Assembly: GCA_007127095.1 (NCBI GenBank)
Contig: SKZY01000021.1
Location: 1-38,544 of the forward strand
Length of the DNA stretch: 38,544 nucleotides
Reading direction: 5' to 3'
From: Planctomycetaceae bacterium
GTDB taxonomy: Bacteria; Planctomycetota; Planctomycetia; Pirellulales; Pirellulaceae
A program made the position numbers and the translations under genes. Positions 2,530 through 34,993 of this stretch are shown one piece after another. The first letter of the stretch is position 1; every line of letters starts with the position of its first letter. A model generated the notes under the pieces. It was not told the origin of the DNA and did not search any database. It saw only the letters and a list, made by a program, of their open reading frames with translations.

Positions 2530-4917
2530 TCAAAGTGGGGCCGAATCATCTTCATCGGGGGTATCTTCATCGGGGGCGGTCGCTCCGCCACCAACGTCTT
2601 CAACCGCTTCCTCCGTCGTGGCATCACCAGCCGCTTCGGAATCGGTCTCGGCCGGCCGTGTCAGGTCGACCCCCAGTCGCTGCAAGTAGGCGATCAGCGC
2701 GACCGCTTGTGTCTCGATCAGCAACACGTCGCCCCGTTTTACCGGGCCACCCTGCGAAACGATTTCGGCGGCGATGACTTCGGCCTGCTCGCGGGCCATC
2801 TGTGGAGCCTCGTCGAGTTCTCGGTCGTAGGGCGCCCCGAGCAGGTGGGCCGCGCGGACGCGATCGGTGATCTGCTTGAAATCGAGACGATTGACCAGCA
2901 GGTGTTCGTAGTTCGGCATCACCGAACCGGGCGAAACCTGTTCGGGGTCTTCGAAGTGCAGCCAATGCCAGAAACTGCTTCGCAAGCCGCCTTCGCGGGC
3001 CAAGTCGGGACCGATCCGCCGGCTACCCCACTGGAACGGTCGGTCGTAGATCGATTCGCCCGGCTTGCTGTATTCCCCATAGCGTTTGGTCTCGGCGACG
3101 ATCGGACGGATCATCTGCGAGTGGCAGTTGAAACAGCCTTCGGCGACGTAAATATCTCGTCCGGCCAGTTCGAGCGGCGTGTACGGTTTGACTGAGGCGA
3201 TCGTCGGAACGTTGCCGCGGATCAAGAACGTCGGGATGACCTCAAATAAGGTAGCGATCACCACAGCCAGCAGAGTCAACACGGTGAACTTGACAGGGAG
3301 TCGTTCCCAGGAACGGTGCCAATCCATCCGGGCCCAAGCCTCGACCCGTTTGCCGAGTTCGAGTACGGGCTTGTCTTCCAGCGAACTGGCAGCGACCCGT
3401 TCGACGTCTCGGTAAGGGCCCAAGCGGGCCGCCGTGTAGGTCGGTTCGTCATAGACAGCGGGACGGGCTCGCCAGGTCATCAAAAAGTTAAGCACCAGCA
3501 TCAACATCCCGCTGAGGAACAGCAGGCCGCCGAAAATCCGGATCGTCCAGTGCGGTACGATCGTCTGGACGGTTTCGATGAAGTCGGGATAGACCAACCG
3601 GCCGGTTTCGTCCATCTCTCGCCACATCAGGCCCTGAGTCAATCCGGCTGCATAAATCGGCACGATGTAAACCAGGATCCCGATCGTCGCGACCCAGAAG
3701 TGCCAGGTCGCCAGTTTGGAACTCCAGAGCGGCGTCTGGAAAAGTCGCGGGAGCAACCAGTAGAGCATTCCGAAGGTCATCATGCCGTTCCAGCCCAGCG
3801 CCCCGGAATGGACGTGGGCGATCGTCCAGTCGGTGTAGTGCGACAGCGAGTTGACGCTTTTGATGCTCAATAACGGCCCCTCGAACGTCGCCATGCCGTA
3901 GAAGGTGATCCCGACGACGAAAAACTTCAACACCGGATCGGTGGCGACTTTGTGCCAGGCCCCACGCAGCGTCAGCAGGCCGTTGATCATGCCACCCCAC
4001 GACGGCATCCACAGCATCAGGCTGAACAGCATCCCCATCGTGCTAGCCCACTCGGGCAGCGCGGTGTAATGCAGGTGGTGGGGGCCGGCCCAAATGTAAA
4101 TGAAGACCAGCGACCAGAAGTGGAGGATACTGAGTTTGTAGCTGAAGACCGGACGTTCGGCGGCTTTGGGCAGGAAATAGTACATCAACCCCAGGAACGG
4201 GGTCGTCAGGAAGAACGCCACGGCGTTGTGACCGTACCACCACTGCATGAACGCGTCTTGCACGCCGGCGTACAGTGAATAACTCTTGAACCAACCGACC
4301 GGCACGACCAGGTTGTTAAAAACATGCAACAGGGCGACGGTAACGACCGTGGCGATGTAGAACCAGAGTGCGACATACATATGCCGCTCGCGGCGTGTGA
4401 TCAGCGTCATCATGAAGTTGACGCCGAAAAAACCGACCCAGACGACGGCGATCGCGATATCGATCGGCCATTCGAGTTCCGCATACTCCTTGCTCTGAGT
4501 GATCCCCAACGGCAGCGTGATCGCCGCGGCGAGGATGATCAATTGCCAGCCCCAGAAATGGAGCAGTCCCAGCGTATCGCTCCACATCCGGCATTTGCAC
4601 AACCGCTGGGTGCTGTAATAGATCGCGGCAAAAATCGCATTTCCCGCGAAGGCGAAGATCGCGGCGTTGGTGTGCAGCGGCCGCAACCGACCGAATGTCA
4701 GGAATTCGCCGTAGGGCCCGAGTTCGAAAAACAGCTTGGGCATCACCATCAGTGAAGCGACGATCGTACCGACCAGCATCGCCACGGCCCCCCACAGGAC
4801 GGTCGCCGCGGCGAACATACGGGTGATCGAATCGTTGTACTGAAACGATTCCAGTTCGCCGCCGGGATGTTCACCGGACGATTGCGACTCGCTCACTGGG
4901 GTGACGGCGTTGGCCAT
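2530..4917 (-). CDS. ccoNO: Fused cbb3 cytochrome c oxidase subunits I and II (CcoN-CcoO)
   Basis: This 795-residue fusion carries the oxygen-reducing core and the haem-c subunit of a high-affinity terminal oxidase in the inner membrane. The first 500 residues or so are CcoN, with about 12 membrane helices. HTNAAIFAFAGN (His82) is a low-spin haem ligand. WWYGHNAVAFF and HHLHYT hold CuB ligands, and IAHVHSGALGWNG holds the haem ligands. The CcoO part has one anchor helix (about 552-570), CFNCH at 595-599 and a later PNYEHLL methionine-ligand region (M of VMPNY). The tail is very acidic. Fused CcoNO is known in Bacteroidetes and Planctomycetes. The start is set at the ATG with GGAG 10 bases upstream. 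A start 45 bases further upstream is in frame but adds no conserved sequence. Confidence 0.95.
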   Translation of the reverse strand: MANAVTPVSESQSSGEHPGGELESFQYNDSITRMFAAATVLWGAVAMLVGTIVASLMVMPKLFFELGPYGEFLTFGRLRPLHTNAAIFAFAGNAIFAAIYYSTQRLCKCRMWSDTLGLLHFWGWQLIILAAAITLPLGITQSKEYAELEWPIDIAIAVVWVGFFGVNFMMTLITRRERHMYVALWFYIATVVTVALLHVFNNLVVPVGWFKSYSLYAGVQDAFMQWWYGHNAVAFFLTTPFLGLMYYFLPKAAERPVFSYKLSILHFWSLVFIYIWAGPHHLHYTALPEWASTMGMLFSLMLWMPSWGGMINGLLTLRGAWHKVATDPVLKFFVVGITFYGMATFEGPLLSIKSVNSLSHYTDWTIAHVHSGALGWNGMMTFGMLYWLLPRLFQTPLWSSKLATWHFWVATIGILVYIVPIYAAGLTQGLMWREMDETGRLVYPDFIETVQTIVPHWTIRIFGGLLFLSGMLMLVLNFLMTWRARPAVYDEPTYTAARLGPYRDVERVAASSLEDKPVLELGKRVEAWARMDWHRSWERLPVKFTVLTLLAVVIATLFEVIPTFLIRGNVPTIASVKPYTPLELAGRDIYVAEGCFNCHSQMIRPIVAETKRYGEYSKPGESIYDRPFQWGSRRIGPDLAREGGLRSSFWHWLHFEDPEQVSPGSVMPNYEHLLVNRLDFKQITDRVRAAHLLGAPYDRELDEAPQMAREQAEVIAAEIVSQGGPVKRGDVLLIETQAVALIAYLQRLGVDLTRPAETDSEAAGDATTEEAVEDVGGGATAPDEDTPDEDDSAPL

Positions 4918-5135
4918 CTCGATGATTCTCCAAAAAAAACCGACCCGATGACTCATTCGCAACGGTTCGCCGACGACACCGCCACCCGCGGTAGACGTCC
5001 GAAGTGGGTGTTGTATTGACGCCGCGGGATCGGCTTTTGAGAACCGATCGTCACGCCGCCATCGCAGTTAGTCGCGACATGGTACCTGATCTTATCGTCG
5101 CTGTGATCGGTGATCGACAGCGGTATCTTGACGCA

Positions 5136-5164: not shown

Positions 5165-8100
5165 TCAGCGACGCAATTCGACGGCGAACCGGTCGGCAAG
5201 GTGTCGCCAATCTTCGATCGCCAGACGTTTGGGGTTGAAGGTCCAGCGGATCACGAGCCGGTCGCCACGCAGTTCCAGATCGAGTTCCAGCGGATGAGGC
5301 CGTGGCAATTGACCGGACCGGGAATTGCCACTGAGCTGACGATCGACCGTGACCGGAAGCGACCCTTCGTCAACGATCCGGCCTAAATAATTGAAACGCA
5401 AAATCGCCGGTCGCACCGTTGCGAGTCGGTGCCGGGTTTCGACGTCGCCGTAAGTCCGCAGCAGTTCGAAGCCGTGGCCGTCGTCATCGAGGCCGTGGAG
5501 GTCGTGTTCGATCCGTTGCGACAATTCGCCACCCGAACGGGTGGAGTCGGCATCGCCGCACTCGATATCATAGGGGAACATGCTGACCAACCAACCGACG
5601 GTCCGAGCGGGATAGACATCGGGCCAGACGACGTTTCGGCCACTGCGTTCGATATCGACGCGGAGCGAATCGAGGCCGCTCCAGCGACGATACGCCCTGC
5701 CGAGTGCGGCCAGCAACCGGGCCGTCGTCGACCAAGGCGATGCCGTCCCATCGTGGCTGTCGGGGTTACCGATCGCCAGCGCGGGGCCGGGTTCAACCTC
5801 CATGGTCTCATGGACCGCATCTCCCACCCAATCGCCGTCATCGCTCAGCAGCGTAGCCGGGCAGCGAGGGCTGGCTTCGGCCAGACGGAGCCAGCGTTCG
5901 CGTTGCGAGTCGAGTCGCCCGGCCTGCACGATGGATCGCATCCGGTTGGCCAAATTGCCACTGCCCGGCAGCGGTGTCGGTTCAAACGAGTTATCAAGCT
6001 GGTAGGCCAACAAGAGGTCTTCGGCCACGATCCGCAGCGACACCGGATCGATCGCCCAGTGGTGAGCGGTGATCGCCAAAGTGCCCTCCGACTGCTGCGA
6101 CGGGAACCATAAAAAACGAACCGGTGGCGTGTTGAGGATGTCGGTCTCGCGGCACGCTTGCCGGACTGCGGTGGCGATCATTTCGCTCGCATCGCCGCTC
6201 GCGGAATCGGTCGCGATGATCCGTAGCGTGTCGTCCGCAGCGGTTTTTGGGAACGTCTGCTGCCAATCGCCATCACACCGCGACGGCCGTGACCGCAAGG
6301 CATCGTGACGGTCGAGCACCCGCTCAACGGCACGCCGGAAGCGGTCGGGCTCGAGTGATTCGGTCAATCGCAACACCAGCCGCAGATGATCGTGGCTGGG
6401 CAGGTCCGGATGACGCCGCACCCATTCGGCTTGAGCGGGTAACAAGGCCGCTTCGGTGACCGGTTCGAACGCTGCGGGATTCGACTGAGTAGCGGCCAGC
6501 CCCGCGGCGAGTTCGCGAACGGTTTGCCACCGCAACAAGTCGGCCGGACGGCAGCGGTAGCCGAGATCACTCAGCGCGGCGACGAGCTGAATCGCCAGCA
6601 GCGAATCGCCGCCGAGCGAAAAGAAATTGTCATACGCACCGACACGTTCGATCCGCAACAGATCGGCCCAAACGGCGGCCAATTCGGATTCCAGTCCCTC
6701 GTCGGGCGTGACGAAACCCGAGGAGGCGATCGATTCGCGGCGATCGGGCGGCGGCAACGCTCGGCGGTCGACCTTGCCGTGGGGCGACAACGGGATCGCG
6801 TCGAGGATCACGACCGCCGAGGGAACCAATTGGGGCGGTAATTGGTCGCGGAGCCCGGCAAGGATCGTCTCGGTCGTGGCCGTCGCTGTGGCGGCGAGGG
6901 TGACGTAAGCGACCAACCGCGGTTGGCCCGGCGTGTCTTGACGAACGATCGCCACCGCCCGTTCGATCCCAGGCAATCGGCCCAACGCCGCTTCGACTTC
7001 ACCCAGTTCGATCCGATATCCGCGGATCTTGACCTGGTGATCGACCCGGCCGATGAACTCCAGCAGTCCGTCGCCGTTCCAGCGACAGAGATCGCCGGTG
7101 GCGTACATCGCCGTACCGTCACAGGCGATCGGATCGGCGACAAACTTGGCGACCGTGAGCTCGGCGTCGTTGATATAGCCGGCGCCGACACAGACGCCGC
7201 CGACGAACAACTGGCCGACGACTCCCGGCGGTACCGGGGAGCGGGATTCATCGAGCACATACAATCGACACCCCGACACCGGGCGGCCGATTGGGACGTC
7301 GGTCGATTCATCACCCCGCTCCGAACCGACCAGGTGGTAGGCGACGACATCACTGCACTCGGTCGGCCCGTAACTGTTCACCAGTTGGGCCCGACACCAC
7401 GGTCGTCCTCGCCAATCGGCCAAACGGTCCAAGTCGATCGGTTCGCCGCCGAGCACCACGGCGCGGAGCGAACCGAGACGTGACGGGTCGAGGTTGGCGG
7501 TGTGAGCGACGATCGGATAAAAGTTGCTGGGCGTGCAGTTGACGATACTGATCTCGCCTCGCCCGATCTCGGTACCGATCGTCTCCGGGTCGAACGGACC
7601 GCTGGGGGCGAGATGCAACTGACCACCGATCAACAGCGGTGCGAAGAGGTTCTTTTGGGTCAGATCGAACCCGTGCGAGGTGACGACCAGGACACGGTCG
7701 GCGGCCGACCAGCGAAACTCATGTAGGTACCACTGCAACAGGTTGGCAAAGCCGCGATGCTTCACCGCGGCCCCCTTCGGCTGTCCGGTCGAGCCTGAAG
7801 TGAAAATGATGTAGGCGATGTCGTCGAGGTCGACGGCGACGTCCGGGTTCGACGCGTCGAGGTGACTCAGCTCTTGCCGCCGTGGCGACAGGATCGGTAA
7901 TTCCTCGCCGAGCCCCGCCAGGTCGAGGCCATCGTCGCCGATCAGGGCGACCATCCCACTGGTCTCGATCATGTGACGCAAGCGGGCCGGTGGATAGTTC
8001 AGGTCGAGCGGCACGTAAGCGGCTCCGACCTTCCACACCGCCAACAGCGCCGCGATCAATTCGGGACACCGTGGCAGGGCGATCCCGACCGCTTGACCGG

Positions 8101-11100
8101 GACCGACCCGCTGGGCGATCAAGTCCGCAGCCAAGTCGTTGGCGTGATCGTTCAACTCACGATAGGTCCAGGCGACGTCCGCGACCTTGACCGGGCCGGC
8201 GTTGCCCCTCGGGACGGATGGTTCGCCCGGTTGCACGACCGCGACCGCATCGGGAGTTCGGGCGACTTGGGCCTCGAACCGTCGGATCACCGGCAGTAAC
8301 GGTTCAGGCGACTCGGGTGCTGCCGCCCACTTCCGCGTGACCTGCAGGCGTTCGTCATCGATCAGGCAATCGTGCCGGGCCAGCCGTCCGGTAGGGGTAC
8401 CGACCAGCGATCGAAGCAACCGTTCATAGCGCTGTAGCATCCGCTCCGCCGTGGCGGCATCGAACAGGTCGCGATTGAATTGCAAGCCGAGCGAAATGCC
8501 GTCATCGGCTTCAGAAGCGGCTAACGAAATGTCGAATTGGGCGGTCCAGTGGTCGAGTGTCTGTGAACGAAACGTCAGATCGCCGACCGCCAACTCCGCC
8601 CCCGAGCGACCCATCAGAAACGGCGTCATCCCTTCGTCGTGCATCACCTGAGCTTTTTGCATCACGAACAATGCCTGAAACAGCGTCGAGCGGCTCGGGT
8701 CGCGTGGCGGCTTCAAACGATCGACCAGCAGCGGCAGCGGGTAATCTTGATGCTCCAAGGCACCGAGCATCCCCTGTCGAGTCTGTTCCAAGAACTCGTC
8801 GGTGGTCATCGCGGGATCTAGCCGCGAGCGAGCGATCACCGGATTGACGAAATAGCCGACCACGTCGGCGAACTCGGCTCGACTGCGACCGCTGGTCGGC
8901 ATTCCGACCAACACGTCGTTTTGGCCGCTGAGTCGATGCAGCAGCAATTGATAAGCGGTCAACAGGACGACATTCAGCGTGACTTGTCGCTGTTGGGCGA
9001 ACCGCTTGATCGATTCGGTCAACTCGGGGTCGAGCCAGCGAAAGGCCAACCCGCCGACGAAAGTCTGTTCGGCCGGACGTGGTCGATCGGTCGGCAATTC
9101 CAACACGGGCAACTCACCGCCGAGCAGATCGAGCCAGTACTGCTGTTGGCGCTGGCCCTCGGGGGTGGCCAGCATCCGCGGTTGCCAGTCGACGAAGTCG
9201 CGGTACTGATGCGTCTGGGGCGGTAGGTCGCTGGTGCGCCCCGCGACCAGGTCGGCATAGATTTGACGGAACTGGTGGGTGCAATGCACCAGCGACCAGA
9301 AGTCGGCGATGATGTGATGGACGGCGAAGAACAACACATGATCGTGCTCGCCACGACGGAACACGATGACTCGCAACAACGGGCCCTGTTCGAGGTCGAA
9401 CGGGCGGTGGGTCTGTTCGGCGATCTGTTGGCGAAGCTTGGCTTCGGGCCAGGCGGTCGCGTCGACAAACGCCAACGGAGTCGCGATCGAGTCGGCGACC
9501 AAGGCGTAGGGTCGCCCGCCGTCGCTATGAAAGGTGGTCCGCAACGCGTCGTGGCGGCTGACGACCGTCGCGATCGCAGCTTCCAGTGCCGCATTCTGCA
9601 GCGAGCCTTCGATCCGAACCGCGTCACTGATGTTGTAAGCCGTCTCCTCGGGAGCCAATTGATGGATGAACCACAACGCCGACTGCCCCTGCGACAACGG
9701 CTGGCTTCGCGGGCCGTCGTGTTCGGTCGAGGCAGACTCGCGACGCTCGACCGTCGCCACGTCCTGGCCGTCGGTCAGCAACTCGGCGACCTGCAGGGCG
9801 AGATCCTGCAGGCTGGGGCCTTCCAGAAACCGAGCCATCGGCAACACGACGCCGATCCGGGCTTCGATCGTATTCTTCAGTTCGATCGCCATCAACGAAT
9901 CGAGACCCATCGCGCCCAGCGATTGATCGGGATCGAGTTGATCGGCGGCGAGTCCCATGATCATGCCGAGTTGCACCGCAAAGTAGTCTCGCAGCATCGT
10001 CACCCGCTGCTCGGCGGCGGATGTCAACAAGCGGTCTCGCAACCCGTGATCGACCTTGTCGACGACCTGCGGTCCGCCAGTCGCTGTTGCCACTTCGCGA
10101 AGCAAACTCGGCAACGGATCGACCGCGGCGAGTCCCGCGACCATCTTCGACCAATCGGCATCGAGCACCGCCCACTGAGCCGTGTCGCGACGCACCGCTG
10201 TGGTCAACAGGTCGAGCGCGTCGGAAGTCGGCAGCAGCGTCAAACCACGACTGTTTAACTGCTCGTCACGGCCCTCCTCGATCGCCATCCCGCCGCTGGC
10301 CCACGGTCCCCAATTGATCACGGTCGCCGGCATTCCGCGGCCACGACGATAGCGGGCGAACGAATCGAGTACCGCATTGGCAGCGGCATAATTCGCTTGT
10401 CCGGGCGAGCCGAGCAGACTGGCGATCGACGAAAACAGCACGAACCGTTCGATCGGCAGATCGGCGGTCAACCGGTGCAGGTTCCAGGTCCCCTGAAGCT
10501 TGGGTGCCAAGGGGCGGGTGAACCGCTGCTCGGTCATCCGGACCAGCAATTGGTCATCCAGAACGCCCGCGGCATGCCAGACGCCACCGATCGTCGGAAA
10601 CGCTTCGGGGAGAGTAGCCAAGGCGGCGGCTAACGATTCTTCGTCACTGACGTCGCCGGCCAGGATCGCGACCGCGACACCCCGGCGACGCAGCGCTGCG
10701 ATCCGAGAGGCGACTTCGGTCGTCGGTTCGCGCCGCGCCAACAGAGCCAGATGCGTCTCACCGTCGTCGGTCAAACGCTCGGCCAGTTGCAAACCGATCG
10801 CCCCCAGACCGCCGGTGATCAACTGCGTCGCTCGACTCACGTCACCGTCGCCGTGGGCACTGCCGCTCTCCGTCGCCGCGGCGGAGGATACCGAGGCCAA
10901 ACCTGTGGCCGAACCTGCGTTCAATGCCGAAGCCGAGCGGCGGAGGTCGACCACGACCTTACCGATGTTTTTTCGCTGCGCCATGTAACGAAACGCGTCA
11001 CGGACGTCGGCGATATCGAACTCGGTCTTCGGCAGCGGCCGGTAGGCCCCCGACTCCAAACCCGCCAGCACGCCATCGAACAACTTGGTGACCAACGCGG

Positions 11101-14100
11101 GACGCTGCCGCAAAACGCGGTCGAGGTCGATCGCGAAGTAGCTGAGGTTGTCTTGAAACGGCAGCAACCCGATCCGGTGGTTTTGGTAGATGTCGACCTT
11201 GCCGATCTCCAAAAACCGTCCGTAGGCAGCCAAAAGCGAGAGACTGCGGTCGATCGCTTCACCGGGCAGACTGTTCAGCACCACATCGACGCCCTGCCCG
11301 TCGGTTTGCGCCAAGATTTGGTCGGCGAACTCGAGCGTCCGGCTGTTGTAGATGTGGCGGATACCGAGCGATCGCAGGTAGTCGCGTTTTTCGTCACTCC
11401 CCGCGGTGGCGAACACCTCGGCACCGATCGATTGGGCGATCTGGATCGCTGCCAGCCCGACACCCCCGGCCGCCGCATGAATCAACACCCGCTCACCCGG
11501 TTGCAGATCGGCCAACTGGACCATTCCGTACCAGGCGGTCAACAGCGTGATCGGGACCGTCGCCGCCTCGGCCGCGGTCAGCGTCGTCGGCATCGCCGCG
11601 AGCGTATGTTCGGGCGCGATCGTGTGCGACGCGAAGCTCAGCGGCGCGACACCGAAAACCCGATCGCCGACGGCCAGCCGGGTCACACTCGGCCCGACCC
11701 GAGTCACCACGCCGGCGCATTCGATCCCCAGCGGTACGATCGTATCGGTGATTCCCGGGTAGAGCCCCATCGCCTTCAACACGTCGCTGAAGTTCAGCCC
11801 GGCTGCTTCGACCGCGATCTCGACGTGCCCGGCCGGCGGTGCGGGCGAGGTGAAGCGTTCCAGCCACAACCCGCTGATCTGATTCGAATCGTCCAGTCGT
11901 AGGCGAAAGGAACCCGAGCCGGGGACCGACAATTCGCCGGAATCGCTCGATTCGGTCTGCTCGTCCACGGCACTTGGGCAGTCTCGCAGTCGCACTGACC
12001 ACCAACGGCCATCCCGCAACGCCAACTGATCCTCGTCGCCCGTTGCAGCGTCAGCGCCTCGCAACAGGGCCGCCAGCCGGTCGTCTGCCATCCGATCGAT
12101 ATCGATCAAGCGGGTTCGTAATTCGGGATGTTCGAGCTGTACGACGCGTCCGAGTCCCCAGATCGCCCCGGCGAGCGGGTTGTCGAGCGGGTCCGATTCG
12201 TCGACCGCTTGGGCTTGCCGGGTCACCAGGGTCAACCGCGGTGGCTGGCCGCCGGCCAGCACCCAGGCTTGGATCGCTTCGACCAGCGTCCACAACCCGG
12301 CGGTCGCGGCGTCGATCAGCGACGTTACATCCGATTCGCTGGTTTTCCGTCCCCGTCCGCCGCGGTCGTCGGTCAAGCCGCGGTCATCTGCGAACCAGAC
12401 GATCTCCGCACCGGCCCAGCGGTCTGCCTCGGTCGGCAACCCGATGCTGACCTGGTCGCCGGAATCGCGCAGGCCGGTCGCGATCGCCTCGAGACGGCCA
12501 GCGATATCGGCGTTGCCGCTGACCGGAGTCACCAGGCACCAGCGCCGCGATTCGATCGCGTTGTCGTCGGAATCCGTCGGCGTTTCTAGCGGTTGCCAAT
12601 CCAATTCGTAAACCCAATCCGACGGGTCGCGTCCCGCTTCACCAGCGGAGCCGGATGTCGTCGCTCGGCGAACCCGGACGTCGATCAGACGGGCCATCAA
12701 CCGGTCGTCGGCGTCGAAGACGTCGAGATTTCCGCTGACGGTGTCGGCGGGACCAACCAACACCTCGGCCGGATCGGGAGTCACACGCATGGCGTGGATC
12801 GTCCGCGGGATACCGGAGTGGAACACGACCAGTTCGCCGACTCCGACCGGCAGATAGGTCTGTCGGGTCGACGTCCCGTCGGCTTCCAACGGCGTGATGG
12901 CGGCCATCGTCTGCATGCATGCATCGAGAAAAACCGGGTGCATCCGATAGCCGGTCGACTCGGCGATCGCGTCTGGTACCCGGCACTCCGCCCAAGCCTC
13001 GGCGGCGGAACGGACGACCTGGTCGAGTGGCCGGAAGGCGGGACCGTAGTCCAATCGCCGGGCGGCGAGCTCGTCGTAAAGAGCGGTGTGGTCCCAGCGA
13101 CAGGCTACTTCTCGCTCGATCCGTCGCCGCGCCCGCTCGGGCCCTGTCACGGCTTCGGAGGAAGTTTCTTTGTGGTCCGAGGTCGCGTCGGCAGCGGCAG
13201 TATCTGTCGCTGCGGCATCACCCGACGTTTTGCCATCGCCCGTTGCTGCGGAAGGGCTCGATTCGTGGCTGCCGGCGTCGGGCTCGGCGACCAGCGTCGC
13301 GCGGGCATGGAGAACCCAGCGTCGTTCAGCGTCGCCGTCGGGGAGGCTGTAGATTTCAACGACGGCTCGGCCGCGGTGCGATGGCGAGACCGTCGTTTGA
13401 ACCGGAATCGGAAGGTCGGCGAGAAACAGCGGTCGTTCGATGGTGAAATCGGTGACGCGATGTATCCCCGCTGCGAAAGTCTGTTCGGCGGCGGAGAGGG
13501 CGGTTTCCAGGAAGGCTGCCGCCGGGACGACGACCGAGCCTTGGACGACGTGATCGGCTAAGTAGGCCGGGCTGGCGGTGCCCCAGTCGCTTTCGAAAAC
13601 CCGTTGGTCGAGCGCCACCGCAACCGGCCAACCGAGCAGCGGATGCAGCGAATCCGATTGGCGACCGCCGCGCTGCGACGTCTCGGGTTGGTCCTCTTGT
13701 TCCTCGAACCAGTGCCGCTGTCGTTGAAACGGATAAGTCGGCAACCGCAAGCGGTGTCCCTGGTCGATGCCGGGTAGTCGTTGCCAATCGAGCGGTGTCC
13801 CGACACAGTGAACCGCCGCGACGGCGGACAAGAAGGTCTCGGTATCGTCGCTGCCGGGCCGCAGTGACGGTTGAGGCGGCGATTCGGGAGCCCCCTGCCC
13901 CGCGTCGATCGCCACGCGGCGGACCATCCCACTGAGGTGAGGCGTCGGTCCGACTTCGATGATCGCTGTCGGCTCGGCCCGCAGGATTTGGGCGGCGCAG
14001 TCGGTGAACTTCACTTCCTCGCGAAGATGGCGTGTCCAATATTCGGCATCGGGCGGTTCGGAAAGCAAGCGACCGGTCAGGTTCGAGACCAATTTTCGCT

Positions 14101-16589
14101 TCGGCTTGGCGAACGAACAGGTCGCGGCAAACCGTCTGAACCGGTCGAGGATCGGATCCATCTGGTGCGAATGAAACGCGTGCGACACCGTCAACCGTTT
14201 GGCCACCACGTCCGAGTCGGCGATCCGGCCGAGCAGTTCCTCCATCGCGTCGGCATCACCCGAGACGACGGTGTTCTCCGGCCCGTTGCAAGCGGCGACC
14301 GTCAATCGACCGTGCCAAGGCGCGATCGCTTCGGCGGCCCGCTGGCGGTCGACCAACAATGCCGCCATCGCGCCGGGCGTGACGACCTGCTGCATCAGCC
14401 GGCCGCGCTCGGCGATCAGACGCATCGTCGTTTCGAGATCCATCACGCCGGCGAGGTGGGCTGCCGCGTATTCGCCGACGCTATGACCGCCGCAGATCGC
14501 GGGCGAGACACCGACGTGTCGCCACAACGCGGCGACTGCGATTTCGATCGCCACCAAGGCGGGTTGTGTGTACTCGGTACGATTCAATAGCTCCGCGGCC
14601 GATTCGCAGTTACCGAAGATCACATCCAGTAGGTCGTGTTCGAGCTGATCGGCGACCGCCGTGGCACATCGCCGGAGCGTTTCGTCGACGATCGGAAAAC
14701 GGGCTGCGAGTTGGCGGCCCATGCCGACGTACTGGGCACCCTGGCCGGTAAACAACATCGCCACGGCCGGACGTTGACCCAGCTTCGCTTGACCACGCAC
14801 CAGCCCGGAGACGGCATTACCGCGTGCTAAGGCGTCGAGTTGTCGCGTCAATTCGTCGGTCGAATGGGCGATCAAGGCGGCCCGGTGAGTGAAATGGTTG
14901 CGTCCCATCGCCGCGGTCCGGGCGATGTCGGGAAGCGCCAAATCGGGATGTTCGGTCAAGTGCTTTGCCCACCGCGCCGCCAGCTCGGCTAACGGCTCCT
15001 TGCCACGGCCGGAGACGGGGACGATCAGCGGAGCGACGGTTGGCGCCGCGGCTTCGCCCGAGGCCGATCGCTCGATCGTTGGCGGTGGGGCGGACGATCG
15101 CCGCGGCGAGCGATACTCCTCGACGACCACGTGGGCGTTGGTGCCGCCGAACCCGAACGAGCTGACCCCGGCTCGCAATGGCCGCTCGGGCCCGTCGGCG
15201 GCTCGCCAGGTCGCCGACTCGGTCGGGATCCGCAGTCGCGAACCGTCCAGCTTGATTGCCGGATTGAGTTTCTTCAGGTGGACCTGGCCGGGGACGATGC
15301 GATGCCGCAACATCAACAAGACTTTGAGCAGTCCGGCCATCCCCGAAACGGTCTCGGTATGGCCGATATTCGCCTTGACGCTGGTCACCGTCACGGGGGA
15401 ATCGTCATCGCCGGTGCGGGCGAAGAGCTGGCAGAGCGCCTGCAGTTCGATCGGGTCACCGAGCGGCGTCGCCGTACCGTGCGCCTCGATGTGATCGATC
15501 TGATCGGTGGTCAAGCCCGCCCGCTGCAGCGCGGTTCGGATGCAAGCGACTTGCGAGCCGCTGTTGGGCGCCGTGATCCCGCTGGTACGACCGTCCTGGT
15601 TGACCGCCGAACCGCGGAGCACGCCATGGATCGGATCACCGGCGGCGATGGCATCGCCGAGCCGTTTGAGCATCACCATCGCGCAGCCTTCGCCGCGGAC
15701 ATAGCCGTTGGCAGCGGCGTCGAAGGGTCGGCAGACACCGTCGGGGCTCAGCATCCGAGCCTTGGCGAAGGCGATCGTGACGTCGGGGACGAGGATCAGA
15801 TTGACACCTCCGGCGAGAGCCGCGTCACAATGTCCCTGACGCAGCGCTTCGATCGCGTTGTTGACCGCTACCAACCCCGAGGAGCAGGCGGTGTCGACGA
15901 TGTAGCTAGGTCCCTGCAGGTCGAGAATGTAGGAGATCCGTCCGGCGGCGATGCTCAATGCGTTACCGGTGCCGACGTGGGCGTCGATGAACGCGTAGTA
16001 ATCGGCGAACCGTTGGGGGATCTTGGCATAATCGGAGCCGCCGATACCGACGAACACGCCGGTGTTCGATCCGGTCAGCGTCGCCGGGGCGATCCCCGCG
16101 TTCTCGATCGCCTCCCAGACGACTTCCAACAACAGCCGCTGCTGGGGGTCGATCCGGCTCGCCTCACGCGGTGTGATCCCGAAGAAGGCGGGGTCGAACT
16201 GATCGACATCGCTGAGGAATCCGCCCCGTCGGACCGACATTTTGCCGGGCTCGGTCCCGGTCGGGTCGTAGAACCGTTCGACGTCCCAACGGCTCGGCGG
16301 GATCTCCGCGGTGGCGTCTCGGCCCTGGCGGATCAGATCCCAAAAGGCATCGACATCGGCCGCCCCGGGAAACCGGCAACTCATCCCGACCACCGCGATC
16401 GGCTCGTCGTGTCGGGGCGCCGGTGAGGCCGCCGCTGCGGTGGTTTGCGAAACGGCCGCTCCGCTCACCGGTGGCCGCCGTTTTTGCAACTTTCGCTCCA
16501 ACAACGCCCGCTGCGCCGGCGTCAGCCGAGCTAGCCGCTGGGCCAATGCGGGGTCGACGTTATCGACCGACATCGCGGGGGAGGCATGA

Positions 16590-16618
<29 letters not shown>
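5165..16618 (-). CDS. Hybrid PKS-NRPS megasynthase: KS-AT-DH-ER-KR-ACP-C-A-PCP-E
   Basis: This 3817-residue cytoplasmic synthase follows the FAAL-ACP gene and overlaps it by 29 bases. Domains in order: an N-terminal docking-like helix (about 22-47); KS (73-500; DTACSS with Cys245, HGTAT, NIGHTE); AT (585-880; GHSVGEY Ser713; HAFHSH, the malonyl-CoA type); DH (980-1260; His1023 in a HxxxGxxxxP motif, Asp1232); a structural pseudo-KR linker; ER (about 1580-1890; nucleotide site HAAAGGVG at 1714); KR (1920-2120; TGGLGAIG, catalytic Tyr2077, LDD-type); ACP (Ser2241); C (2325-2760; HHIIADFWS, His2435); A (2790-3290; [10 protein letters not shown] at 2940); PCP (Ser3339); and an epimerization-type domain (3395-3817; HHWAIDPVS His3520, [15 protein letters not shown] near 3742). 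All catalytic residues inspected are present, so it should add one fully reduced C2 unit and one amino acid. There is no thioesterase or reductase. A start at 16573 is an alternative. Confidence 0.95.
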
Positions 16619-18800
<2,182 letters not shown>

Positions 18801-18898
18801 CGCGTTTCCTTATCGGCAGCAACGATCTCGCCCCTGCATCGAATCGAATCAAAGTACAAACCGACCGTCTCCAAAAATAAGCGACGTGCGGAAAAGCA

Positions 18899-19000
18899 AT
18901 GTCAGGCACCTTTTGCGAGGAACTTGCCCTACGGGTGCGACGCACACGGTTCCAGACGCAAAAAACGTTCCCGACACTTACTCTTCTTTCCGCTCGATCC
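18899..19000. repeat. REP-like palindromic element, copy A
   Basis: The left end gtcaggcacctt with gcgagga, and the right ends ggttccagac (18948-18957) and cgttcccgacactta, form an imperfect palindrome. The element ends with cgctcgatcc. It resembles copy B at 25395-25474 over almost its whole length, but has about 20 extra bases carrying a second right-end copy. The GTCAGGCACC / GGTTCCTGAC type of end is, from memory, common in planctomycete dispersed repeats of the kind mobilised by REP-associated transposases. It lies in the probable untranslated leader of the FAAL gene. No other gene is seen in 18801-19260. Confidence 0.65.
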
Positions 19001-19067
19001 TAAAACTGACCCATCCGGTCACGTCTCTGGCCGACCAAACTGCCGCTGGGTAACTCACGAACCCCGC

Positions 19068-19095
19068 ATTGTAGTTTGACGATGGTAGCCATCAA
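19068..19095 (-). promoter_or_regulatory. Putative sigma70-type promoter for the FAAL-PKS-NRPS operon
   Basis: On the minus strand TTGATG (19095-19090) and TACAAT (19073-19068) stand 16 bases apart, close to the consensus -35 and -10 boxes. A small perfect inverted repeat, gatgg-tag-ccatc (19081-19093), overlaps the -35 box and spacer where a repressor could bind. Transcription would start near 19060 and give a leader of about 260 bases containing REP-like copy A. This is read by eye only. Confidence 0.45.
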
Positions 19096-19104
19096 AACCT
19101 TTTT

Positions 19105-19121
19105 ATGGCGGGTTCCGCCAT
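19105..19121. promoter_or_regulatory. Perfect inverted repeat between divergent promoters
   Basis: atggcgg-gtt-ccgccat is a 7-bp perfect inverted repeat with a 3-base centre. It lies just upstream of the putative minus-strand -35 box and about 55 bases before the plus-strand TACAAT box. That is a typical place for a regulator controlling the synthetase and exporter together. No regulator gene is nearby. Confidence 0.35.
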
Positions 19122-19174
19122 GCCCAAGAGCCAACCGCTCGACGAGTGCCGCGGTACCTGATCGACCGTCGAGT

Positions 19175-19180
19175 TACAAT
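19175..19180 (+). promoter_or_regulatory. Putative -10 box for the MMPL exporter gene
   Basis: TACAAT stands about 80 bases before the ATG at 19261, in the context gagttacaatgctc. No good -35 hexamer is visible at 16-18 bases upstream, so the promoter would be weak or need an activator. The same TACAAT box occurs in the opposite direction at 19068-19073 and again at 36745-36750. Confidence 0.35.
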
Positions 19181-19260
19181 GCTCTGCCAGCGGCGGATTG
19201 CGCCGCCGATCAACCGTCGTCCGGCAACCGTCCGGTCAACCCCGCGCGGCCGGCAACAGC

Positions 19261-21675
19261 ATGCATTCCGATTCGGATCATCACCGAACTGTCGATCAAT
19301 CGCTCGGCGACGGTCGCGACGATCGCCGCTGGGGATTGCTGTCACTGGTGGTGGCGCTTGCCATGGCGCTGTCCGCTCCGCTGCTGGTGTCGGGATCGAT
19401 CACCGCGATCGGTTCGATGCGAAACGCGCCGATGCTCTGGATCGCCGATGATTTCCCGGCGCTGCGTGATTTCGAGCGGTTCGTCGATCGGTTCGGTGTC
19501 CATGAAACGATCCTGATCAGTTGGCCCGGATGCACCATCGACGACCGGCGTCTGCCGGAATTCGCCGAGCGACTTCGGCAGGAGTCGGCGCGTCGCGTCG
19601 CTGCCGGCGAAGATCGCCGGATACTCGCGGTACCCAATGGCTACGACACTTCGCAGCTGTTGGTTGAGACCACGGGACTGTCGCGGTCCGCGGCGATCAA
19701 TCGGTTGACCGGCTTGTTGGTCGGCCCCGACGGCCAGACATCGTGTGCCGCGGTGGAACTGACCCGCCGTGGCGCGATCGATCGGGTCGAATCGCTGGAA
19801 ATGATTCTCACCGTCGCGGAGCAGGCGGTCGGGTTGGATCGCGACCAATTCCGACTCGCCGGTCCACCGATCGATGGGATCGCGATCGACCGTCAAAGTA
19901 TCCGATCGATCGAAGCCTTTTCGTTGCCGTCGACGATTCTTTCCACGCTGCTCTGCTGGTTTTGCCTGCGATCACTCTGGTTCACCGCGGCCGTCGTGCT
20001 GGTCGCCAGTGTCGGCCAGGGCGTCTCGCTGGCGGCGATCCACTACTGCGGCATCGAGATGAACGCGGTCTTGATCGTGTTGCCACCGCTGGTCTTCGTC
20101 TTGACGATCTCCGCCGGGATTCACTTGGTGCGATATTACCTGGAAGAGATTTGGGCCGACAATCGCGGCATGGCGGTCCGTGAAGCGCTCGCTAAGAGTT
20201 GGCGACCGTCGGTGTTGGCCGCACTGACAACCGCGATCGGACTGGCGTCACTGTGGGTCAGTCGGATCGAACCGATTCGCCAATTCGGACTGCTCGGCGC
20301 GATCATCGTCCCCTCGATGACTCTGTTGCTGTTCCTGCTGTTGCCCGGCGTGATGGCTTATTGGCCGCCGCGGCGGAAACCGGTGGCCGCCGGACGTACT
20401 GACCCGGCCGCCAGGCACCCACATCAGGATGCCAATCCGTCGCTGCCGATTACGCGGCTACCCGAGTCGATCGTTCGGCCCCAATCGCCGTTGTCGTCCG
20501 AATCGGGGCTCTGGCCGCCGCTGGCCCGAGCGATCGAGCGGCAGCATCGGCTGATCATCGTTGCCGCGATCGTGCTCCTGACGTGCGGTTTCTGGGGGCT
20601 CACCCGGCTCTCCTCTTCCCTGAACGTCGTCTCCTTACTGGCTGACGAAACGCGAACGATCCAAGATTATCGCTGGTTCCGCGATCAGATCGGCCCGCTG
20701 GTCACGGTCGAAGCGGTGCTGCGGTTCGATCCCAGTTGTCCTCTGAGCCCGCTGGAACGGTTGGCACTGGTGACCGAAGTCCATGCCGAAATGTTGCGCG
20801 ATGACCAGATCGATGTGGCGATCTCCCCGGCCACCTTCTTGCCGCCACCGCCTCGTGGCCGGGGAATCCGCGATATCGCTCGCCGCAAAGTATTCCAAAA
20901 ACGGCTCGCAGACAGCCACGACCTGCTGGAATCGGGAGGTTATTTCCGGTCGACCGAGCAAGGGCAATTGTGGCGGATCAGCGGCCGGGTCGCCGGTCAG
21001 GTGAATACCGACTACGGGGTGTTGCTCGCCGGTTTAAGCGATCGACTCGACCGGGTCGCCCGCGAGTCGTCGGCGAACGATTCGATCGAACTCCGCTACA
21101 CCGGCCTGACACCGCTGATCTTTGAAATCCAGCGGGCGCTGCTGAGTGACTTGTTTAACAGCTTTTTGACGGCCATCGTCCTGGTCGGCGGTGTGATGAT
21201 CGTCACCACGCGAGGCATCGCTCGTGGTCTGATGACGATGATTCCAAATATCTTCCCAACCGTCGTCCTGTTCGGCGCCATGGGCTGGCTGCAACGTCCC
21301 GTCGACATCGGCTCCGTGATGACCGCTTGCGTCGCCTTGGGAATCGCCGTCGACGGGACCTTCCACTTTCTCGCTTCCTACCTTCGCAAGCGACGTGCGG
21401 GGCTACTCGAAACCGATGCCGTCGGGCGCACGCTGCAGAATTGTGGGCTGGCTCTGTTACAAACGACACTGATCTGTTCGGCCGGCATGCTGGTCTTCCT
21501 GACCAGCGGTTTTCTGCCGGCCCGACATTTCGCTTGGATGTTGATCATCCTGCTGGTCGTCGCTGCCGTTGGCGATCTGATCGTGCTGCCCGCATTGCTG
21601 CTGAGCCGTATGGGCAGGCGACGGTTTCAGACCCCGATCGGTCCGTCGGACGACGCGGCACTGCTCGAAACCTAG
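19261..21675 (+). CDS. MMPL/RND-family lipid exporter
   Basis: This 804-residue inner-membrane protein has two repeats of the RND layout. In each, one helix (about 28-48, then about 438-458) is followed by a large periplasmic loop and a cluster of five helices (about 215-360 and 625-790). The second cluster has VALGIAVDGTFHFLASY, the Asp/His pattern expected for the proton relay of MMPL-type transporters. It is divergent from the FAAL-PKS-NRPS operon, much as mycobacterial mmpL genes sit beside fadD-pks lipid loci, so export of that operon's product is likely but inferred. A hopanoid-type transporter is the main alternative. The ATG is chosen over a TTG 63 bases upstream because the extra residues are Arg-rich and unlike a membrane protein start. 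It ends 3 bases before the convergent RNase HII-like gene. Confidence 0.88.
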   Translation: MHSDSDHHRTVDQSLGDGRDDRRWGLLSLVVALAMALSAPLLVSGSITAIGSMRNAPMLWIADDFPALRDFERFVDRFGVHETILISWPGCTIDDRRLPEFAERLRQESARRVAAGEDRRILAVPNGYDTSQLLVETTGLSRSAAINRLTGLLVGPDGQTSCAAVELTRRGAIDRVESLEMILTVAEQAVGLDRDQFRLAGPPIDGIAIDRQSIRSIEAFSLPSTILSTLLCWFCLRSLWFTAAVVLVASVGQGVSLAAIHYCGIEMNAVLIVLPPLVFVLTISAGIHLVRYYLEEIWADNRGMAVREALAKSWRPSVLAALTTAIGLASLWVSRIEPIRQFGLLGAIIVPSMTLLLFLLLPGVMAYWPPRRKPVAAGRTDPAARHPHQDANPSLPITRLPESIVRPQSPLSSESGLWPPLARAIERQHRLIIVAAIVLLTCGFWGLTRLSSSLNVVSLLADETRTIQDYRWFRDQIGPLVTVEAVLRFDPSCPLSPLERLALVTEVHAEMLRDDQIDVAISPATFLPPPPRGRGIRDIARRKVFQKRLADSHDLLESGGYFRSTEQGQLWRISGRVAGQVNTDYGVLLAGLSDRLDRVARESSANDSIELRYTGLTPLIFEIQRALLSDLFNSFLTAIVLVGGVMIVTTRGIARGLMTMIPNIFPTVVLFGAMGWLQRPVDIGSVMTACVALGIAVDGTFHFLASYLRKRRAGLLETDAVGRTLQNCGLALLQTTLICSAGMLVFLTSGFLPARHFAWMLIILLVVAAVGDLIVLPALLLSRMGRRRFQTPIGPSDDAALLET

Positions 21676-25474: not shown

Positions 25475-28400
25475 TTAACCCATGTAGGGCAACCGACGGC
25501 CTTGGCGTCGGGCGGCGTTGAGTTGGGCTCGCAACTCGTCGCGGTCGAGTGGCCGGATCGGCATCGTGACTAGCGACATCACATCGATCTCGTTCCCACC
25601 TTCGCGTTTCGCGACCATCTCGATCTCTTCTTCGAGCGCCGCCAACCAGGCCGGCATATCGAGTCCGACACCGGTCGGGTGTTGGGTCAACAGATCGGCT
25701 TCGCGTTCCAATAGATCGAAAGCGACACTGGCGCGATTCGCCTCGGCGTCGCGGGCGGCCGGTTCGACCAAGGCTCGCATCCGATCGATCGTCATCGGTT
25801 GGACGAAACGTTCGAGAATCCGATCGGCGACCGTCGGCATCCGCATCGCGTACTCGCGTTGCAGCCCACGCAGCTTGGTGACGTAGATGTCGGCCTTCGA
25901 CCCGATCCGTTCGGAGAGACTTCTTCGCCAGATCATCGCGGCGTTGTCGAAACGGCTACGGACCAAGATTTCATGGGCCCAGAAGACCGGTTTGAGGTTC
26001 CATGCGACACGGTCGTAGCGGACTCGGAGTCGCAAGAAGTCGTGGAACATGTAGATCAGGTCGCCGCGATCGCTTTGCGTTGTCGTGCTGTTGTAATCGA
26101 GGAACTCGGCGTGGTGTTCGAGGATCGATTCGAAGACCAGAGCGAGCCAGCGTTCGGCTTCGCGGCGGTTCACATCGCCGCTCTCGAGGTCTTCGAACAG
26201 TGCGGTCCGCTTGATCTCTTCGTTGGAAGCCAGCACCGTGTCGATCCAAGTCCCCACGCCCTGGTGCAGGATCGCTCGAATGTTGGAAAGTTTGAGAAAT
26301 GCCTGGGTGAACAGCGGGTCGCCGTATTGTCGGACGAAGGCGACCAATTGTTCCCAATTCCCCTCATCGGCGACGGCTTCGAGTGATGACAGCCGGAGAG
26401 TCTGGCTGTGGGCGAGCCAGCTCGAAAGCATCGTTTCGGTGACCGATTCGAGCAGCGAGATCAGGTCTTGGGTGCGGTTGTCGTCAGTCGTGGCGGACCA
26501 GGATCGGACGGACGCGACCAACGAGGTAACCAATGAGCGAAAGCCGATCCGGAACAGCCCGTCGAACTCGGTCACCGCACCGGAGCCGATCGGGTGATTC
26601 TGTTCCATCAGCCGCGCCGATTCGACCAACCGACAGGCTTCGACGTAGAGACCGCGACGCGGCATCCGGTGCAGCAGGTGGTGCAGCATCCGCTGCCGTA
26701 GCCGGGCGGCAAAAATCTTGACCGGGTCGCCGCCACGGGACAGCGGGATGTAGAGCAGATTGGCGTACTTTAGCGGCCCGAGCAGGGCGGGGAATTGACG
26801 GCGGGCCTCGTCGTGATCGTCGCCGACCAACGCGGCGAACATCCGTACCGCGACGGCGTCATCGGTACCCATCGCCAGCAGCGATTCGTCGACTTGGCCG
26901 GTCAGCGTGGGGTGTCGTTGTTGGTGGGCGATCAGGACCCCGGTGATCACGCGCCTGGCATCGGAAACGTCGACGGTCGTCCCGATCAATCGTTCCAGCA
27001 ATGAATCGCGGACCATCCTGCGACGGTCGTAGCTCCGCATCGAATCGTTGTCCGAGCCTTGGGGGACGACGCGGTAGCGACGGACGGCGTCGAGTAATTC
27101 GAGCAGTCCTTGTCGGTTTTCCGCTGCTCGGGCGGCCCAGCCGCTGAAGGCCGACAATCGTTCGCCGAGCTGTTCAGGCGGCAGCGATTGATCCGGCGAC
27201 GCTTCGTTTCCTGCCTTCTCAATCGCCCCGGTGGCGAACCCGATGTCGGCCGCGATGACCCACATTTTCGCCAATGCACTGAGAAAGGCGAGATGTTCGA
27301 CGAGCCGTTTCGATTCGGCTTCGAGGTCGTCTTGGTCTTCCTCGGCACGAGAGCCTTGGCCCCCGAAAACCGCACCTTCATTCCCGTCGTCGGTGGAGTC
27401 TTGGTAGGTGACGTCTTCGTAGGCGGCGTCATAGAGCCGTTGTTCCGGATCGTCGCCTTCGCCCACATTCTCGACGAGATCGGCGTCGGACGATTCGTCC
27501 AGGCCACCATCGAGCAGCGCATCCCAGTCACGCGGTTTGGACTTCGTTTTACCGAGCGCGAACGTCGGAGCCGACCAGTACGATTCGGCATTCGCTTCGA
27601 GAAAATCGAGAAATTTTCGTGCCAGTGACCAAGCATCTCGCTCGGTTGGGACAGCGTTGGCGAGCGTTTCGTCAGCCTGCTGAAAGGCATCGAAGTCGTC
27701 CGATTTGATCCCGGCGGCCATCCGCAGCCGGACCAGCCAGCGGACGGCGAGCAGCGGCAACGAACTGCCACCGAGTCGCAGTCCGATCCGGGGGGCGTTC
27801 TCCAACCAGTGAATCAACAGCGCCATCGAAGCGATGAAGTCGCGACGATCGAGCAGCGCGCCGATCACCAACGCGTAGGCCCGTGGCGAATCGAACAGGT
27901 CGGCGTGGGGTGCCCAAAAGCCGATGTCACCGGCAGCCGCACCGCCACGATGCCAAAGCCGCAACGCCCTGGCGACCAGCTTCGCCGATTCGTACGACTC
28001 GGCGGGGTCGACCGCTTCGACCGCATCGACCGTATGGGCGGCGAAGCGGCCCCACCACTTAGCCGCCCGGTCGAATTGGTGGTCGATTCGTGAGTAGATC
28101 ACTTCATCGTCGCGGGCCGCGGCTTCGCTCCAGACCCGCGCCATGTAGCCGAAATGTTGTTCGACCAATTGCACCAGGTCGTCCACGCGGTGGTCGTGGA
28201 TGCCGTGTTCGGGGCCGGGAAACAGGTTGAAGTTGCCGCCGAAGTAGAGGATGCACCAAGGGTCGATGCAGGCGCCGCAATCGATCGCGCGGAGCAACAG
28301 ATTGAAGACCTGTTCGGGGACGACCGAAGCCGCTTCGAGGTCGCCGGCACGGAGGCTCCGCAGTCCACCCGACATCAGGCAATCGATCCGACACATCAGC

Positions 28401-29629: not shown

Positions 29630-29681
29630 CAAAGGCGATCGAAAGGGGGAGAGCGCAGGCCGGACGGTCGACGCGGGCGGA

Positions 29682-34845: not shown

Positions 34846-34993
34846 TGACACGTTAACCTTGCTGGAGTGGAAAAGGCTGCCGCTAGTCCTGCGGCCCAGC
34901 CAACCGGTAATATATGTGGCGTTCGTTTTAGATCTGTCTCCGGCAATGCCTCGTTTTGTAACCGAACTGTAAAACCTTCAGGCGACGCCCCGA

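What the first reader, a model, noticed from the sequence alone, without database searches (positions are those of the whole stretch)
5165..21675. Compact FAAL-ACP / PKS-NRPS / MMPL locus likely making and exporting a lipo-amino acid
Three genes appear to hold a nearly complete route: fatty acid activation and loading, one fully reducing malonyl extension, one amino acid condensation and probable epimerization, and a divergent lipid exporter. With only one PKS and one NRPS module the predicted product is an N-acyl (probably D-) amino acid with a chain two carbons longer than the starter. I know no described planctomycete product of this form. All catalytic residues I inspected are intact, so the line is probably active.
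Basis: partly seen in the sequence, partly recalled or inferred. Interest (0 to 1): 0.8.

Follow-up and report, generated by a model that had tools for sequence, protein, structure and literature searches.

The report
Assembly line predicted to make acyl-homoserine
Three neighbouring bacterial genes look like a small factory that lengthens a fatty acid, joins it to one amino acid (most likely homoserine) and exports it, which may be an unfamiliar route to the lactone signals many bacteria use to communicate.

Summary
The three genes are as described: FAAL-ACP; KS-AT-DH-ER-KR-ACP-C-A-PCP-E; a divergent MMPL transporter; motifs intact. New here: the A-domain code reads DLKNVGSDVK, printed for homoserine/homoserine-lactone domains. 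The closest relative (G036:C74, same domain order, 47% A-domain identity) and the best-ranked plasmid hit (Eleftheria terrae) carry the same code; of 510 A-domain pairs at 38-50% identity only these three pairs agree at nine positions. Of eight related lines whose C-termini I examined, only the two with this code end in an epimerase-type domain without a fused release domain. Homoserine can leave a thioester by closing its own lactone, so the favoured product is a saturated N-acyl-(probably D-)homoserine or its lactone, exported by the MMPL. Against: a discrete thioesterase gene beside G036:C74; a Hse-like third line ends in thioesterase; the window's E domain is diverged; no LuxR-type receptor domain in four genomes; codes are predictions. 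MMPL relatives sit by FAAL/PKS domains in 6 of 9 neighbourhoods read, but no MMPL was found at G036:C74. New variant of a known kind; no chemistry shown.

The parts
16590..18800 (-). FAAL-ACP: fatty acyl-AMP ligase with a C-terminal acyl carrier domain (carrier about 16743-16940)
   Evidence: Pfam AMP-binding and PP-binding; FAAL structures best by phmmer; FAAL models in NCBIfam, below their cut-offs
5165..16618 (-). hybrid PKS-NRPS synthetase, 3817 aa, start 29 bases inside the FAAL gene end
15275..16405 (-). KS domain
   Evidence: Pfam; DTACSS, EAHGT, NIGH motifs
13799..14755 (-). AT domain, malonyl-type by HAFH motif (rule recalled)
   Evidence: Pfam; motif
12659..13645 (-). DH domain
   Evidence: Pfam PKS_DH_N and PS-DH; [10 protein letters not shown] and DACMQ
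10949..11833 (-). ER domain
   Evidence: Pfam ADH_N and ADH_zinc_N; HAAAGGVG
10298..10831 (-). KR domain, with VLDD motif
   Evidence: Pfam KR; motifs
9797..9961 (-). PKS acyl carrier domain
   Evidence: Pfam PP-binding; GLDSL
8348..9703 (-). C (condensation) domain, HHIIADF
   Evidence: Pfam Condensation; motif
6773..8278 (-). A (adenylation) domain, code DLKNVGSDVK
   Evidence: Pfam; code by alignment; code listed for Hse/Hsl
6524..6721 (-). PCP domain (limits approximate)
   Evidence: GGDSL at residue 3336; two PP-binding stretches counted in the protein
5180..6451 (-). terminal epimerization-type domain, no thioesterase after it
   Evidence: Condensation superfamily 96 bits; E-domain-bearing entries rank first; TIGR01720 below cut-off; HH..D, Glu and FNYLG positions kept
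19261..21675 (+). MMPL / RND-superfamily transporter, transcribed divergently
   Evidence: Pfam MMPL; HAE3 family TIGR00921 below cut-off
18801..19260 (.). divergent intergenic region; one sigma-70-like site on the - strand at 19095-19068, consensus match only

Best explanation
The locus is a one-PKS, one-NRPS assembly line for an N-acyl homoserine. FAAL adenylates a fatty acid and loads it on its own carrier; KS-AT-DH-ER-KR-ACP adds one malonyl unit and fully reduces it; C joins the acyl chain to homoserine that the A domain has loaded on the PCP; the E-type domain probably epimerizes it to D. With no fused thioesterase, the homoserine side-chain hydroxyl attacks the thioester and the product leaves as N-acyl-(D-)homoserine lactone, an acyl-homoserine-lactone-type molecule with a saturated chain, which the MMPL protein carries out of the inner membrane. 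Shown by sequence: domain order, motifs, code, absence of a fused release domain. Inferred: homoserine (about 0.7), lactone release (about 0.55 given homoserine), D form (about 0.55), export by this MMPL (about 0.65).
For: Domain order and motifs. Code DLKNVGSDVK, printed for Hse/Hsl domains (PMC12283262, passages); DLKNFGSDVK, 9 of 10, was read as Hse by antiSMASH 4.1.0 in a laxaphycin-type cluster (PMC7524897, passage). Same ten letters in G036:C74 (47% A-domain identity) and in the best-ranked of 496 plasmid records, Eleftheria terrae. In 510 A-domain pairs at 38-50% identity only these three pairs share the first nine positions. The three Hse-like codes then known group 100/100 among 18 A domains. 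Of eight lines whose C-termini were examined, the two with the exact code, and only they, end in an E-type domain without a fused release domain. Elsewhere in the genome C domains were found only on C409, a second FAAL-NRPS. MMPL relatives sit by FAAL or PKS domains in 6 of 9 neighbourhoods read, in G224 with the same order and orientation.
Against: G036:C74 has a discrete thioesterase gene (L054:6631-7374) divergent from its FAAL, which could release the chain there. G461 has a Hse-like code (DLKNFGTDIK) and a fused thioesterase. PMC12283262 says the code is frequently accompanied by Ser/Dha; antiSMASH 5.1 gave no prediction for the laxaphycin domain and its A domains had no published biochemistry; PARAS counts homoserine among the hard-to-predict substrates. 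In laxaphycins Hse lies inside the chain, so a PCP-bound Hse need not self-release. The window's E domain is below the TIGR01720 cut-off and has SL where the two E-type domains aligned with it have SW. No LuxR autoinducer-binding domain in the genome nor in G036, G461, G240 (0 of 3). No MMPL hit beside G036:C74. The genome is a draft (95.6% complete), so a partner or thioesterase could be missing.
Confidence: 0.4

Rival explanations
1. Same line and same amino acid, but the chain is released by hydrolysis (a thioesterase or hydrolase acting in trans) as open N-acyl-(D-)homoserine, or transferred to another acceptor.
For: Discrete thioesterase beside the closest relative; fused thioesterase in G461; the own genome has two weak thioesterase-family places outside the C409 synthetase.
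Against: No thioesterase domain among the 17 window ORFs scanned; the two genomic candidates score only 34.5 and 26 bits.
Confidence: 0.25
2. The A domain activates another amino acid (serine, threonine or an unlisted one); the product is an ordinary N-acyl amino acid and the lactone idea falls.
For: Codes are predictions; the survey notes co-occurrence with Ser/Dha; homoserine is poorly predicted.
Against: Exact ten-letter match to a printed Hse code, nine-letter match to another; full conservation at 46-49% identity in two related lines and one otherwise different synthetase; serine-type codes in the same plasmid search read DVWHISLVDK or DVWHVSLVDK, close to the Ser strings of the survey.
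Confidence: 0.25
3. The MMPL gene is a chance neighbour and the product is not exported by it (for example it stays as a membrane aminolipid).
For: No MMPL hit beside G036:C74 or G036:C31; 3 of 9 neighbourhoods of MMPL relatives show no FAAL or PKS domain.
Against: 6 of 9 such neighbourhoods do, including the four best full-length matches; MMPL-family genes also lie at G240 and G461.
Confidence: 0.25

Closest known systems
FAAL-PKS-NRPS lipopeptide starters (laxaphycin / scytocyclamide type)
   Same: Homoserine-type A-domain code (DLKNFGSDVK); FAAL and PKS starter logic in that family is recalled.
   Different: Those lines build 11-12 residue cyclic peptides; here one amino acid only, with a terminal E-type domain.
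LuxI / LuxM acyl-homoserine-lactone synthases
   Same: Predicted product class (N-acyl homoserine lactone).
   Different: Single small enzymes using SAM and an acyl donor (recalled); here a multidomain template with free homoserine. The LuxI family was not searched.
Stieleriacine biosynthesis (NasY) in planctomycetes
   Same: N-acyl amino acid from planctomycetes.
   Different: N-acyl amino acid synthase and a dehydrotyrosine core (abstract); passages searched show no FAAL or polyketide term.
Mycobacterial FadD / PKS / MmpL lipid loci
   Same: FAAL plus reducing PKS plus MMPL transporter in one locus (recalled); Pks2 and Pks13 models match the PKS half below their cut-offs.
   Different: No NRPS module in those named (recalled); KS-AT here is closer to CurL than to MAS.
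G036:C74 locus of another genome in the same family
   Same: Same gene pair, same domain order, same A code.
   Different: No MMPL hit beside it; discrete thioesterase and phosphopantetheinyl transferase beside it.

Membership tests
FAAL-PKS-NRPS hybrid line | FAAL with carrier feeding a PKS module followed by C-A-PCP | tested here: met
   domain content and order; the transfer itself is not shown
Homoserine-activating A domain | Ten-residue specificity code printed for Hse | tested here: met
   9 of 10
Homoserine-activating A domain | Measured preference for homoserine | not testable with these tools
   needs an enzyme assay
NRPS epimerization domain | Closest to E domains rather than C domains among solved structures | tested here: met
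   PvdL, bacitracin synthase 3, tyrocidine synthase 2, GrsA and TycA entries rank first; which stretches of these are E domains is partly recalled
NRPS epimerization domain | TIGR01720 above its curated cut-off | tested here: not met
   40.4 against 74.2; the G036:C74 domain meets it with 87.0
NRPS epimerization domain | Catalytic HH...D, Glu and Asn positions kept (positions recalled) | tested here: met
   alignment
Line with thioesterase release | Fused or neighbouring thioesterase | tested here: not met
   17 window ORFs; genome-wide only C409 (inside another synthetase) and two weak places
AHL quorum-sensing system | LuxR-type receptor with autoinducer-binding domain | tested here: not met
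   PF03472: 0 of 1 own genome, 0 of 3 relatives
AHL quorum-sensing system | LuxI-type synthase | not tested
   no search made
MMPL lipid transporter | MMPL domain above Pfam cut-off | tested here: met
   52.9 against 20.5 bits; TIGR00921 and TIGR00833 below their cut-offs

The most novel reading that the evidence does not exclude
A modular assembly line, not a LuxI/LuxM-type enzyme, makes a saturated N-acyl-D-homoserine lactone that self-releases from the carrier because homoserine closes its own ring, and a dedicated MMPL pump exports it; the absence of LuxR-type receptor domains would then point to an unknown receptor or a non-signal role.
Probability: 0.3. Interest if true: 0.85.

Novelty: new variant of a known kind. 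Interest (0 to 1): 0.6.

Why it matters
If homoserine is the substrate, acyl-homoserine-lactone-type molecules could have a second kind of biosynthesis, in a group of bacteria where LuxR-type receptor domains were not found in the four genomes tested, and two genes would suffice for a direct test. Even if the product is open N-acyl homoserine, it would be a lipo-amino acid made by a route different from the one described for planctomycete N-acyl tyrosines. The related lines examined, ending in E, TE, TE plus cyclopropane synthase, reductase or KAS III, are a natural series for studying how release follows the amino acid loaded.

Tried and rejected
Mycobacterial-type iterative PKS: considered because Pks2 and Pks13 models match; KS-AT is closer to CurL, so a single extension is preferred, but iteration is not excluded. 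Terminal domain as a second condensation domain: judged unlikely because E-domain-bearing entries rank first and TIGR01720 is hit by the terminal domains of the window and G036:C74 but not by two C domains; a third E-like piece, from G626, was not hit either, but it was cut short at 331 residues. A hand-over to another synthetase: the only other C domains found in the genome are on C409, which carries its own FAAL and thioesterase. LuxR receptor: none found in the genome. A strict rule 'homoserine code means no thioesterase': rejected, since G461 breaks it and G036:C74 has a discrete thioesterase. A search of the class for more such A domains gave matches in 17 of 397 genomes, own genome included; of the 14 loci read besides the own one, one (G054, DLKNFGTDVK) had a Hse-like code, and a condensation-type domain follows it. 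The genome-contig scan gave five distant relatives, none with this domain order in the stretches held. Literature: ten searches; no listed title or abstract start showed an NRPS- or PKS-made acyl-homoserine lactone, but several listings were capped below the number of papers found, most papers were seen as listings only, and subscription journals are mostly absent.

Full report
What is there. Three genes, as reported, at the stated coordinates. The synthetase (5165-16618, minus strand) holds KS-AT-DH-ER-KR-ACP-C-A-PCP and a second condensation-superfamily domain. The FAAL-ACP gene (16590-18800, minus) overlaps it by 29 bases and matches solved fatty acyl-AMP ligases. The MMPL gene (19198 or more likely 19261 to 21675, plus) is divergent. 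Downstream of the synthetase lie cbb3 oxidase genes. The other window ORFs scanned show no thioesterase and no enzyme or regulator that obviously belongs; a fatty acid desaturase gene lies some 12 kb beyond the MMPL at 33811-34851, and its relation is unknown.

Motifs. KS, AT, DH, ER, KR and both synthetase carrier motifs are intact; the FAAL carrier reads FGLDSL. AT carries HAFH, which by recalled rules means malonyl. Two phosphopantetheinyl transferase-family places exist in the genome. The KS-AT region is closest to CurL among solved structures, with mycocerosic acid synthase further down, so one extension is the simpler reading.

Terminal domain. Among solved structures PvdL, bacitracin synthase 3, tyrocidine and gramicidin synthetase entries rank first. 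The model TIGR01720, which I recall as associated with E domains, is hit at 40.4 bits, below its cut-off of 74.2; the corresponding domain of G036:C74 scores 87.0; two C domains and a shortened E-like piece of G626 are not hit. HH..D, the Glu and the FNYLG Asn are kept; SL replaces the SW of the two E-type domains aligned with it. I read it as a diverged epimerase; its activity is uncertain.

The amino acid. Aligned to a recalled GrsA ruler, the ten positions read DLKNVGSDVK. A survey of 2051 A domains lists exactly this string within homoserine/homoserine-lactone-activating domains, frequently accompanied by Ser/Dha (PMC12283262, abstract start and passages). DLKNFGSDVK was recognised as homoserine by antiSMASH 4.1.0, not by 5.1, in a laxaphycin-type cluster (PMC7524897, one passage); laxaphycins contain homoserine (PMC8471579, passages). 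The closest relative, G036:C74, has the same ten letters at 47% A-domain identity. The best-ranked of 496 plasmid records, Eleftheria terrae, has them too at 46%; I fetched 5 of those 496 and one carried the code. Over the A domains collected, 510 pairs fall at 38-50% identity and only three pairs share the first nine positions: the window, G036:C74 and E. terrae with each other (domains with a gap in the code were dropped, and E. terrae had been picked as the closest plasmid hit). In a tree of 18 A domains the three with Hse-like codes then known (window, G036:C74, G461) form one group, 100/100.

Relatives and release. The C domain was sought in 396 genomes of the order (12 with E <= 1e-90), in the 241 held of the family (5) and in 392 of the phylum (3); each count includes the own genome. 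In the family every matching place was read, and only the window and G036:C74 show the full architecture ending in E. In the order five matching genomes (G074, G077, G086, G108, G114) were not read. I examined the C-termini of eight lines: window and G036:C74 end in an E-type domain; G036:C31 in thioesterase; G240 in thioesterase plus a cyclopropane-synthase domain; G461 in thioesterase; G048 in a reductase; G038 and G466 in KAS III. G466 has no PKS part, and no FAAL was hit in the G461 stretch. Codes: DAEDVGTVVK (G036:C31), DHEDVGNVVK (G240), DILQ-type (G048, G038, G466) and DLKNFGTDIK (G461). So the exact code goes with absence of a fused release domain in 2 of 2, but the Hse-like G461 has a thioesterase, and G036:C74 has a discrete thioesterase gene and a phosphopantetheinyl transferase beside its FAAL. 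G382 and G626 were left out because the stretches are cut or multimodular; G111 was seen by BLAST only.

Mechanism. Homoserine bound as a thioester can close to its five-membered lactone (chemistry recalled). That would explain a line with no fused release domain and no downstream partner: the only other condensation domains found in the genome lie on C409, a separate FAAL-NRPS with its own thioesterase. The counter-example is that laxaphycins carry homoserine inside the chain, so self-release is not inevitable. In the window's genome the thioesterase-family places outside C409 are two weak matches, so release in trans cannot be excluded, nor can a gene missing from the draft.

Export. The window MMPL's relatives were sought in 396 genomes of the order; 236, own included, have a match at E <= 1e-60. 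I fetched nine neighbourhoods, not strictly the top nine: G219, G224, G360, G405, G078, G088 and G048:C13 from the best rows, passing over G140 and others, G335 for its high identity in two pieces, and G003 because a FAAL hit on its contig was already known. Six hold FAAL or PKS domains of this type: G219, G224, G360, G405, G335, G003; three do not: G078, G088, G048:C13. The four best full-length matches (G219, G224, G360, G405) are among the six. G224 has the same order and orientation, MMPL divergent from FAAL and KS, before its contig ends. In the other five no NRPS domain was hit in the stretch read and a GH3-family amido synthetase lies beside the PKS (5 of 5). At G036:C74 and G036:C31 no MMPL was hit in the stretches read; at G240 an MMPL gene and an outer-membrane efflux protein follow the synthetase, and an MMPL-family gene lies near the G461 line. 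So linkage is mainly to the FAAL/PKS half and is frequent, not universal.

Signal? No LuxR autoinducer-binding domain (PF03472) is found in the genome or in G036, G461, G240 (0 of 3). If the lactone is made, a classical LuxR circuit in the producer is unlikely.

Known ground. Stieleriacines are N-acyl tyrosine-type products of planctomycetes made with NasY (PMC12479983, abstract and passages); for one of them, direct interference with the LuxR system of a competitor was tested and not supported (PMC7293339, passages). The listings of ten literature searches showed no NRPS-made acyl-homoserine lactone, within an open-licence library and with several listings capped. PARAS counts homoserine among hard substrates (PMC13126170, one passage).

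Verdict. Nothing chemical is shown.

Noticed in passing
L107, L101, L103, L104, L109 (G003, G219, G360, G405, G335): A recurring cluster without a detected NRPS domain: reducing PKS of the same type, GH3-family amido synthetase (5 of 5), enolase-superfamily enzyme (4 of 4 checked), alpha/beta hydrolase (2 of 2 checked) and MMPL. Possibly another way to attach an amine head group.
   Followed up: partly
L095:8344-12360 (G240): Synthetase ends in thioesterase fused to a mycolic-acid cyclopropane synthase domain, followed by MMPL; an outer-membrane efflux protein gene lies next to that.
   Followed up: no
L117:14177-16327 and L115:12958-15129 (G038, G466): Lines with a DILQ-type code that end in a KAS III-like domain after the PCP.
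   Followed up: no
L097:4510-7056 (G048): Related line ending in a thioester-reductase-type domain (NAD_binding_4).
   Followed up: no
G000:C409: Second FAAL-NRPS of the same genome, open frame 3649 aa, with two A domains and a thioesterase.
   Followed up: no
L139:5001-6536 (Eleftheria terrae plasmid NZ_CP106952.1): A stretch with no gene in PLSDB's incomplete table, between two listed NRPS genes, encodes an A domain with the identical ten-letter code.
   Followed up: partly
window 2530-4962: CcoN-like (COX1) and CcoO-like (FixO) parts of a cbb3 oxidase lie in one 810-aa frame.
   Followed up: no
window 25475-29632: 1385-aa ORF without any Pfam match at E 0.05.
   Followed up: no
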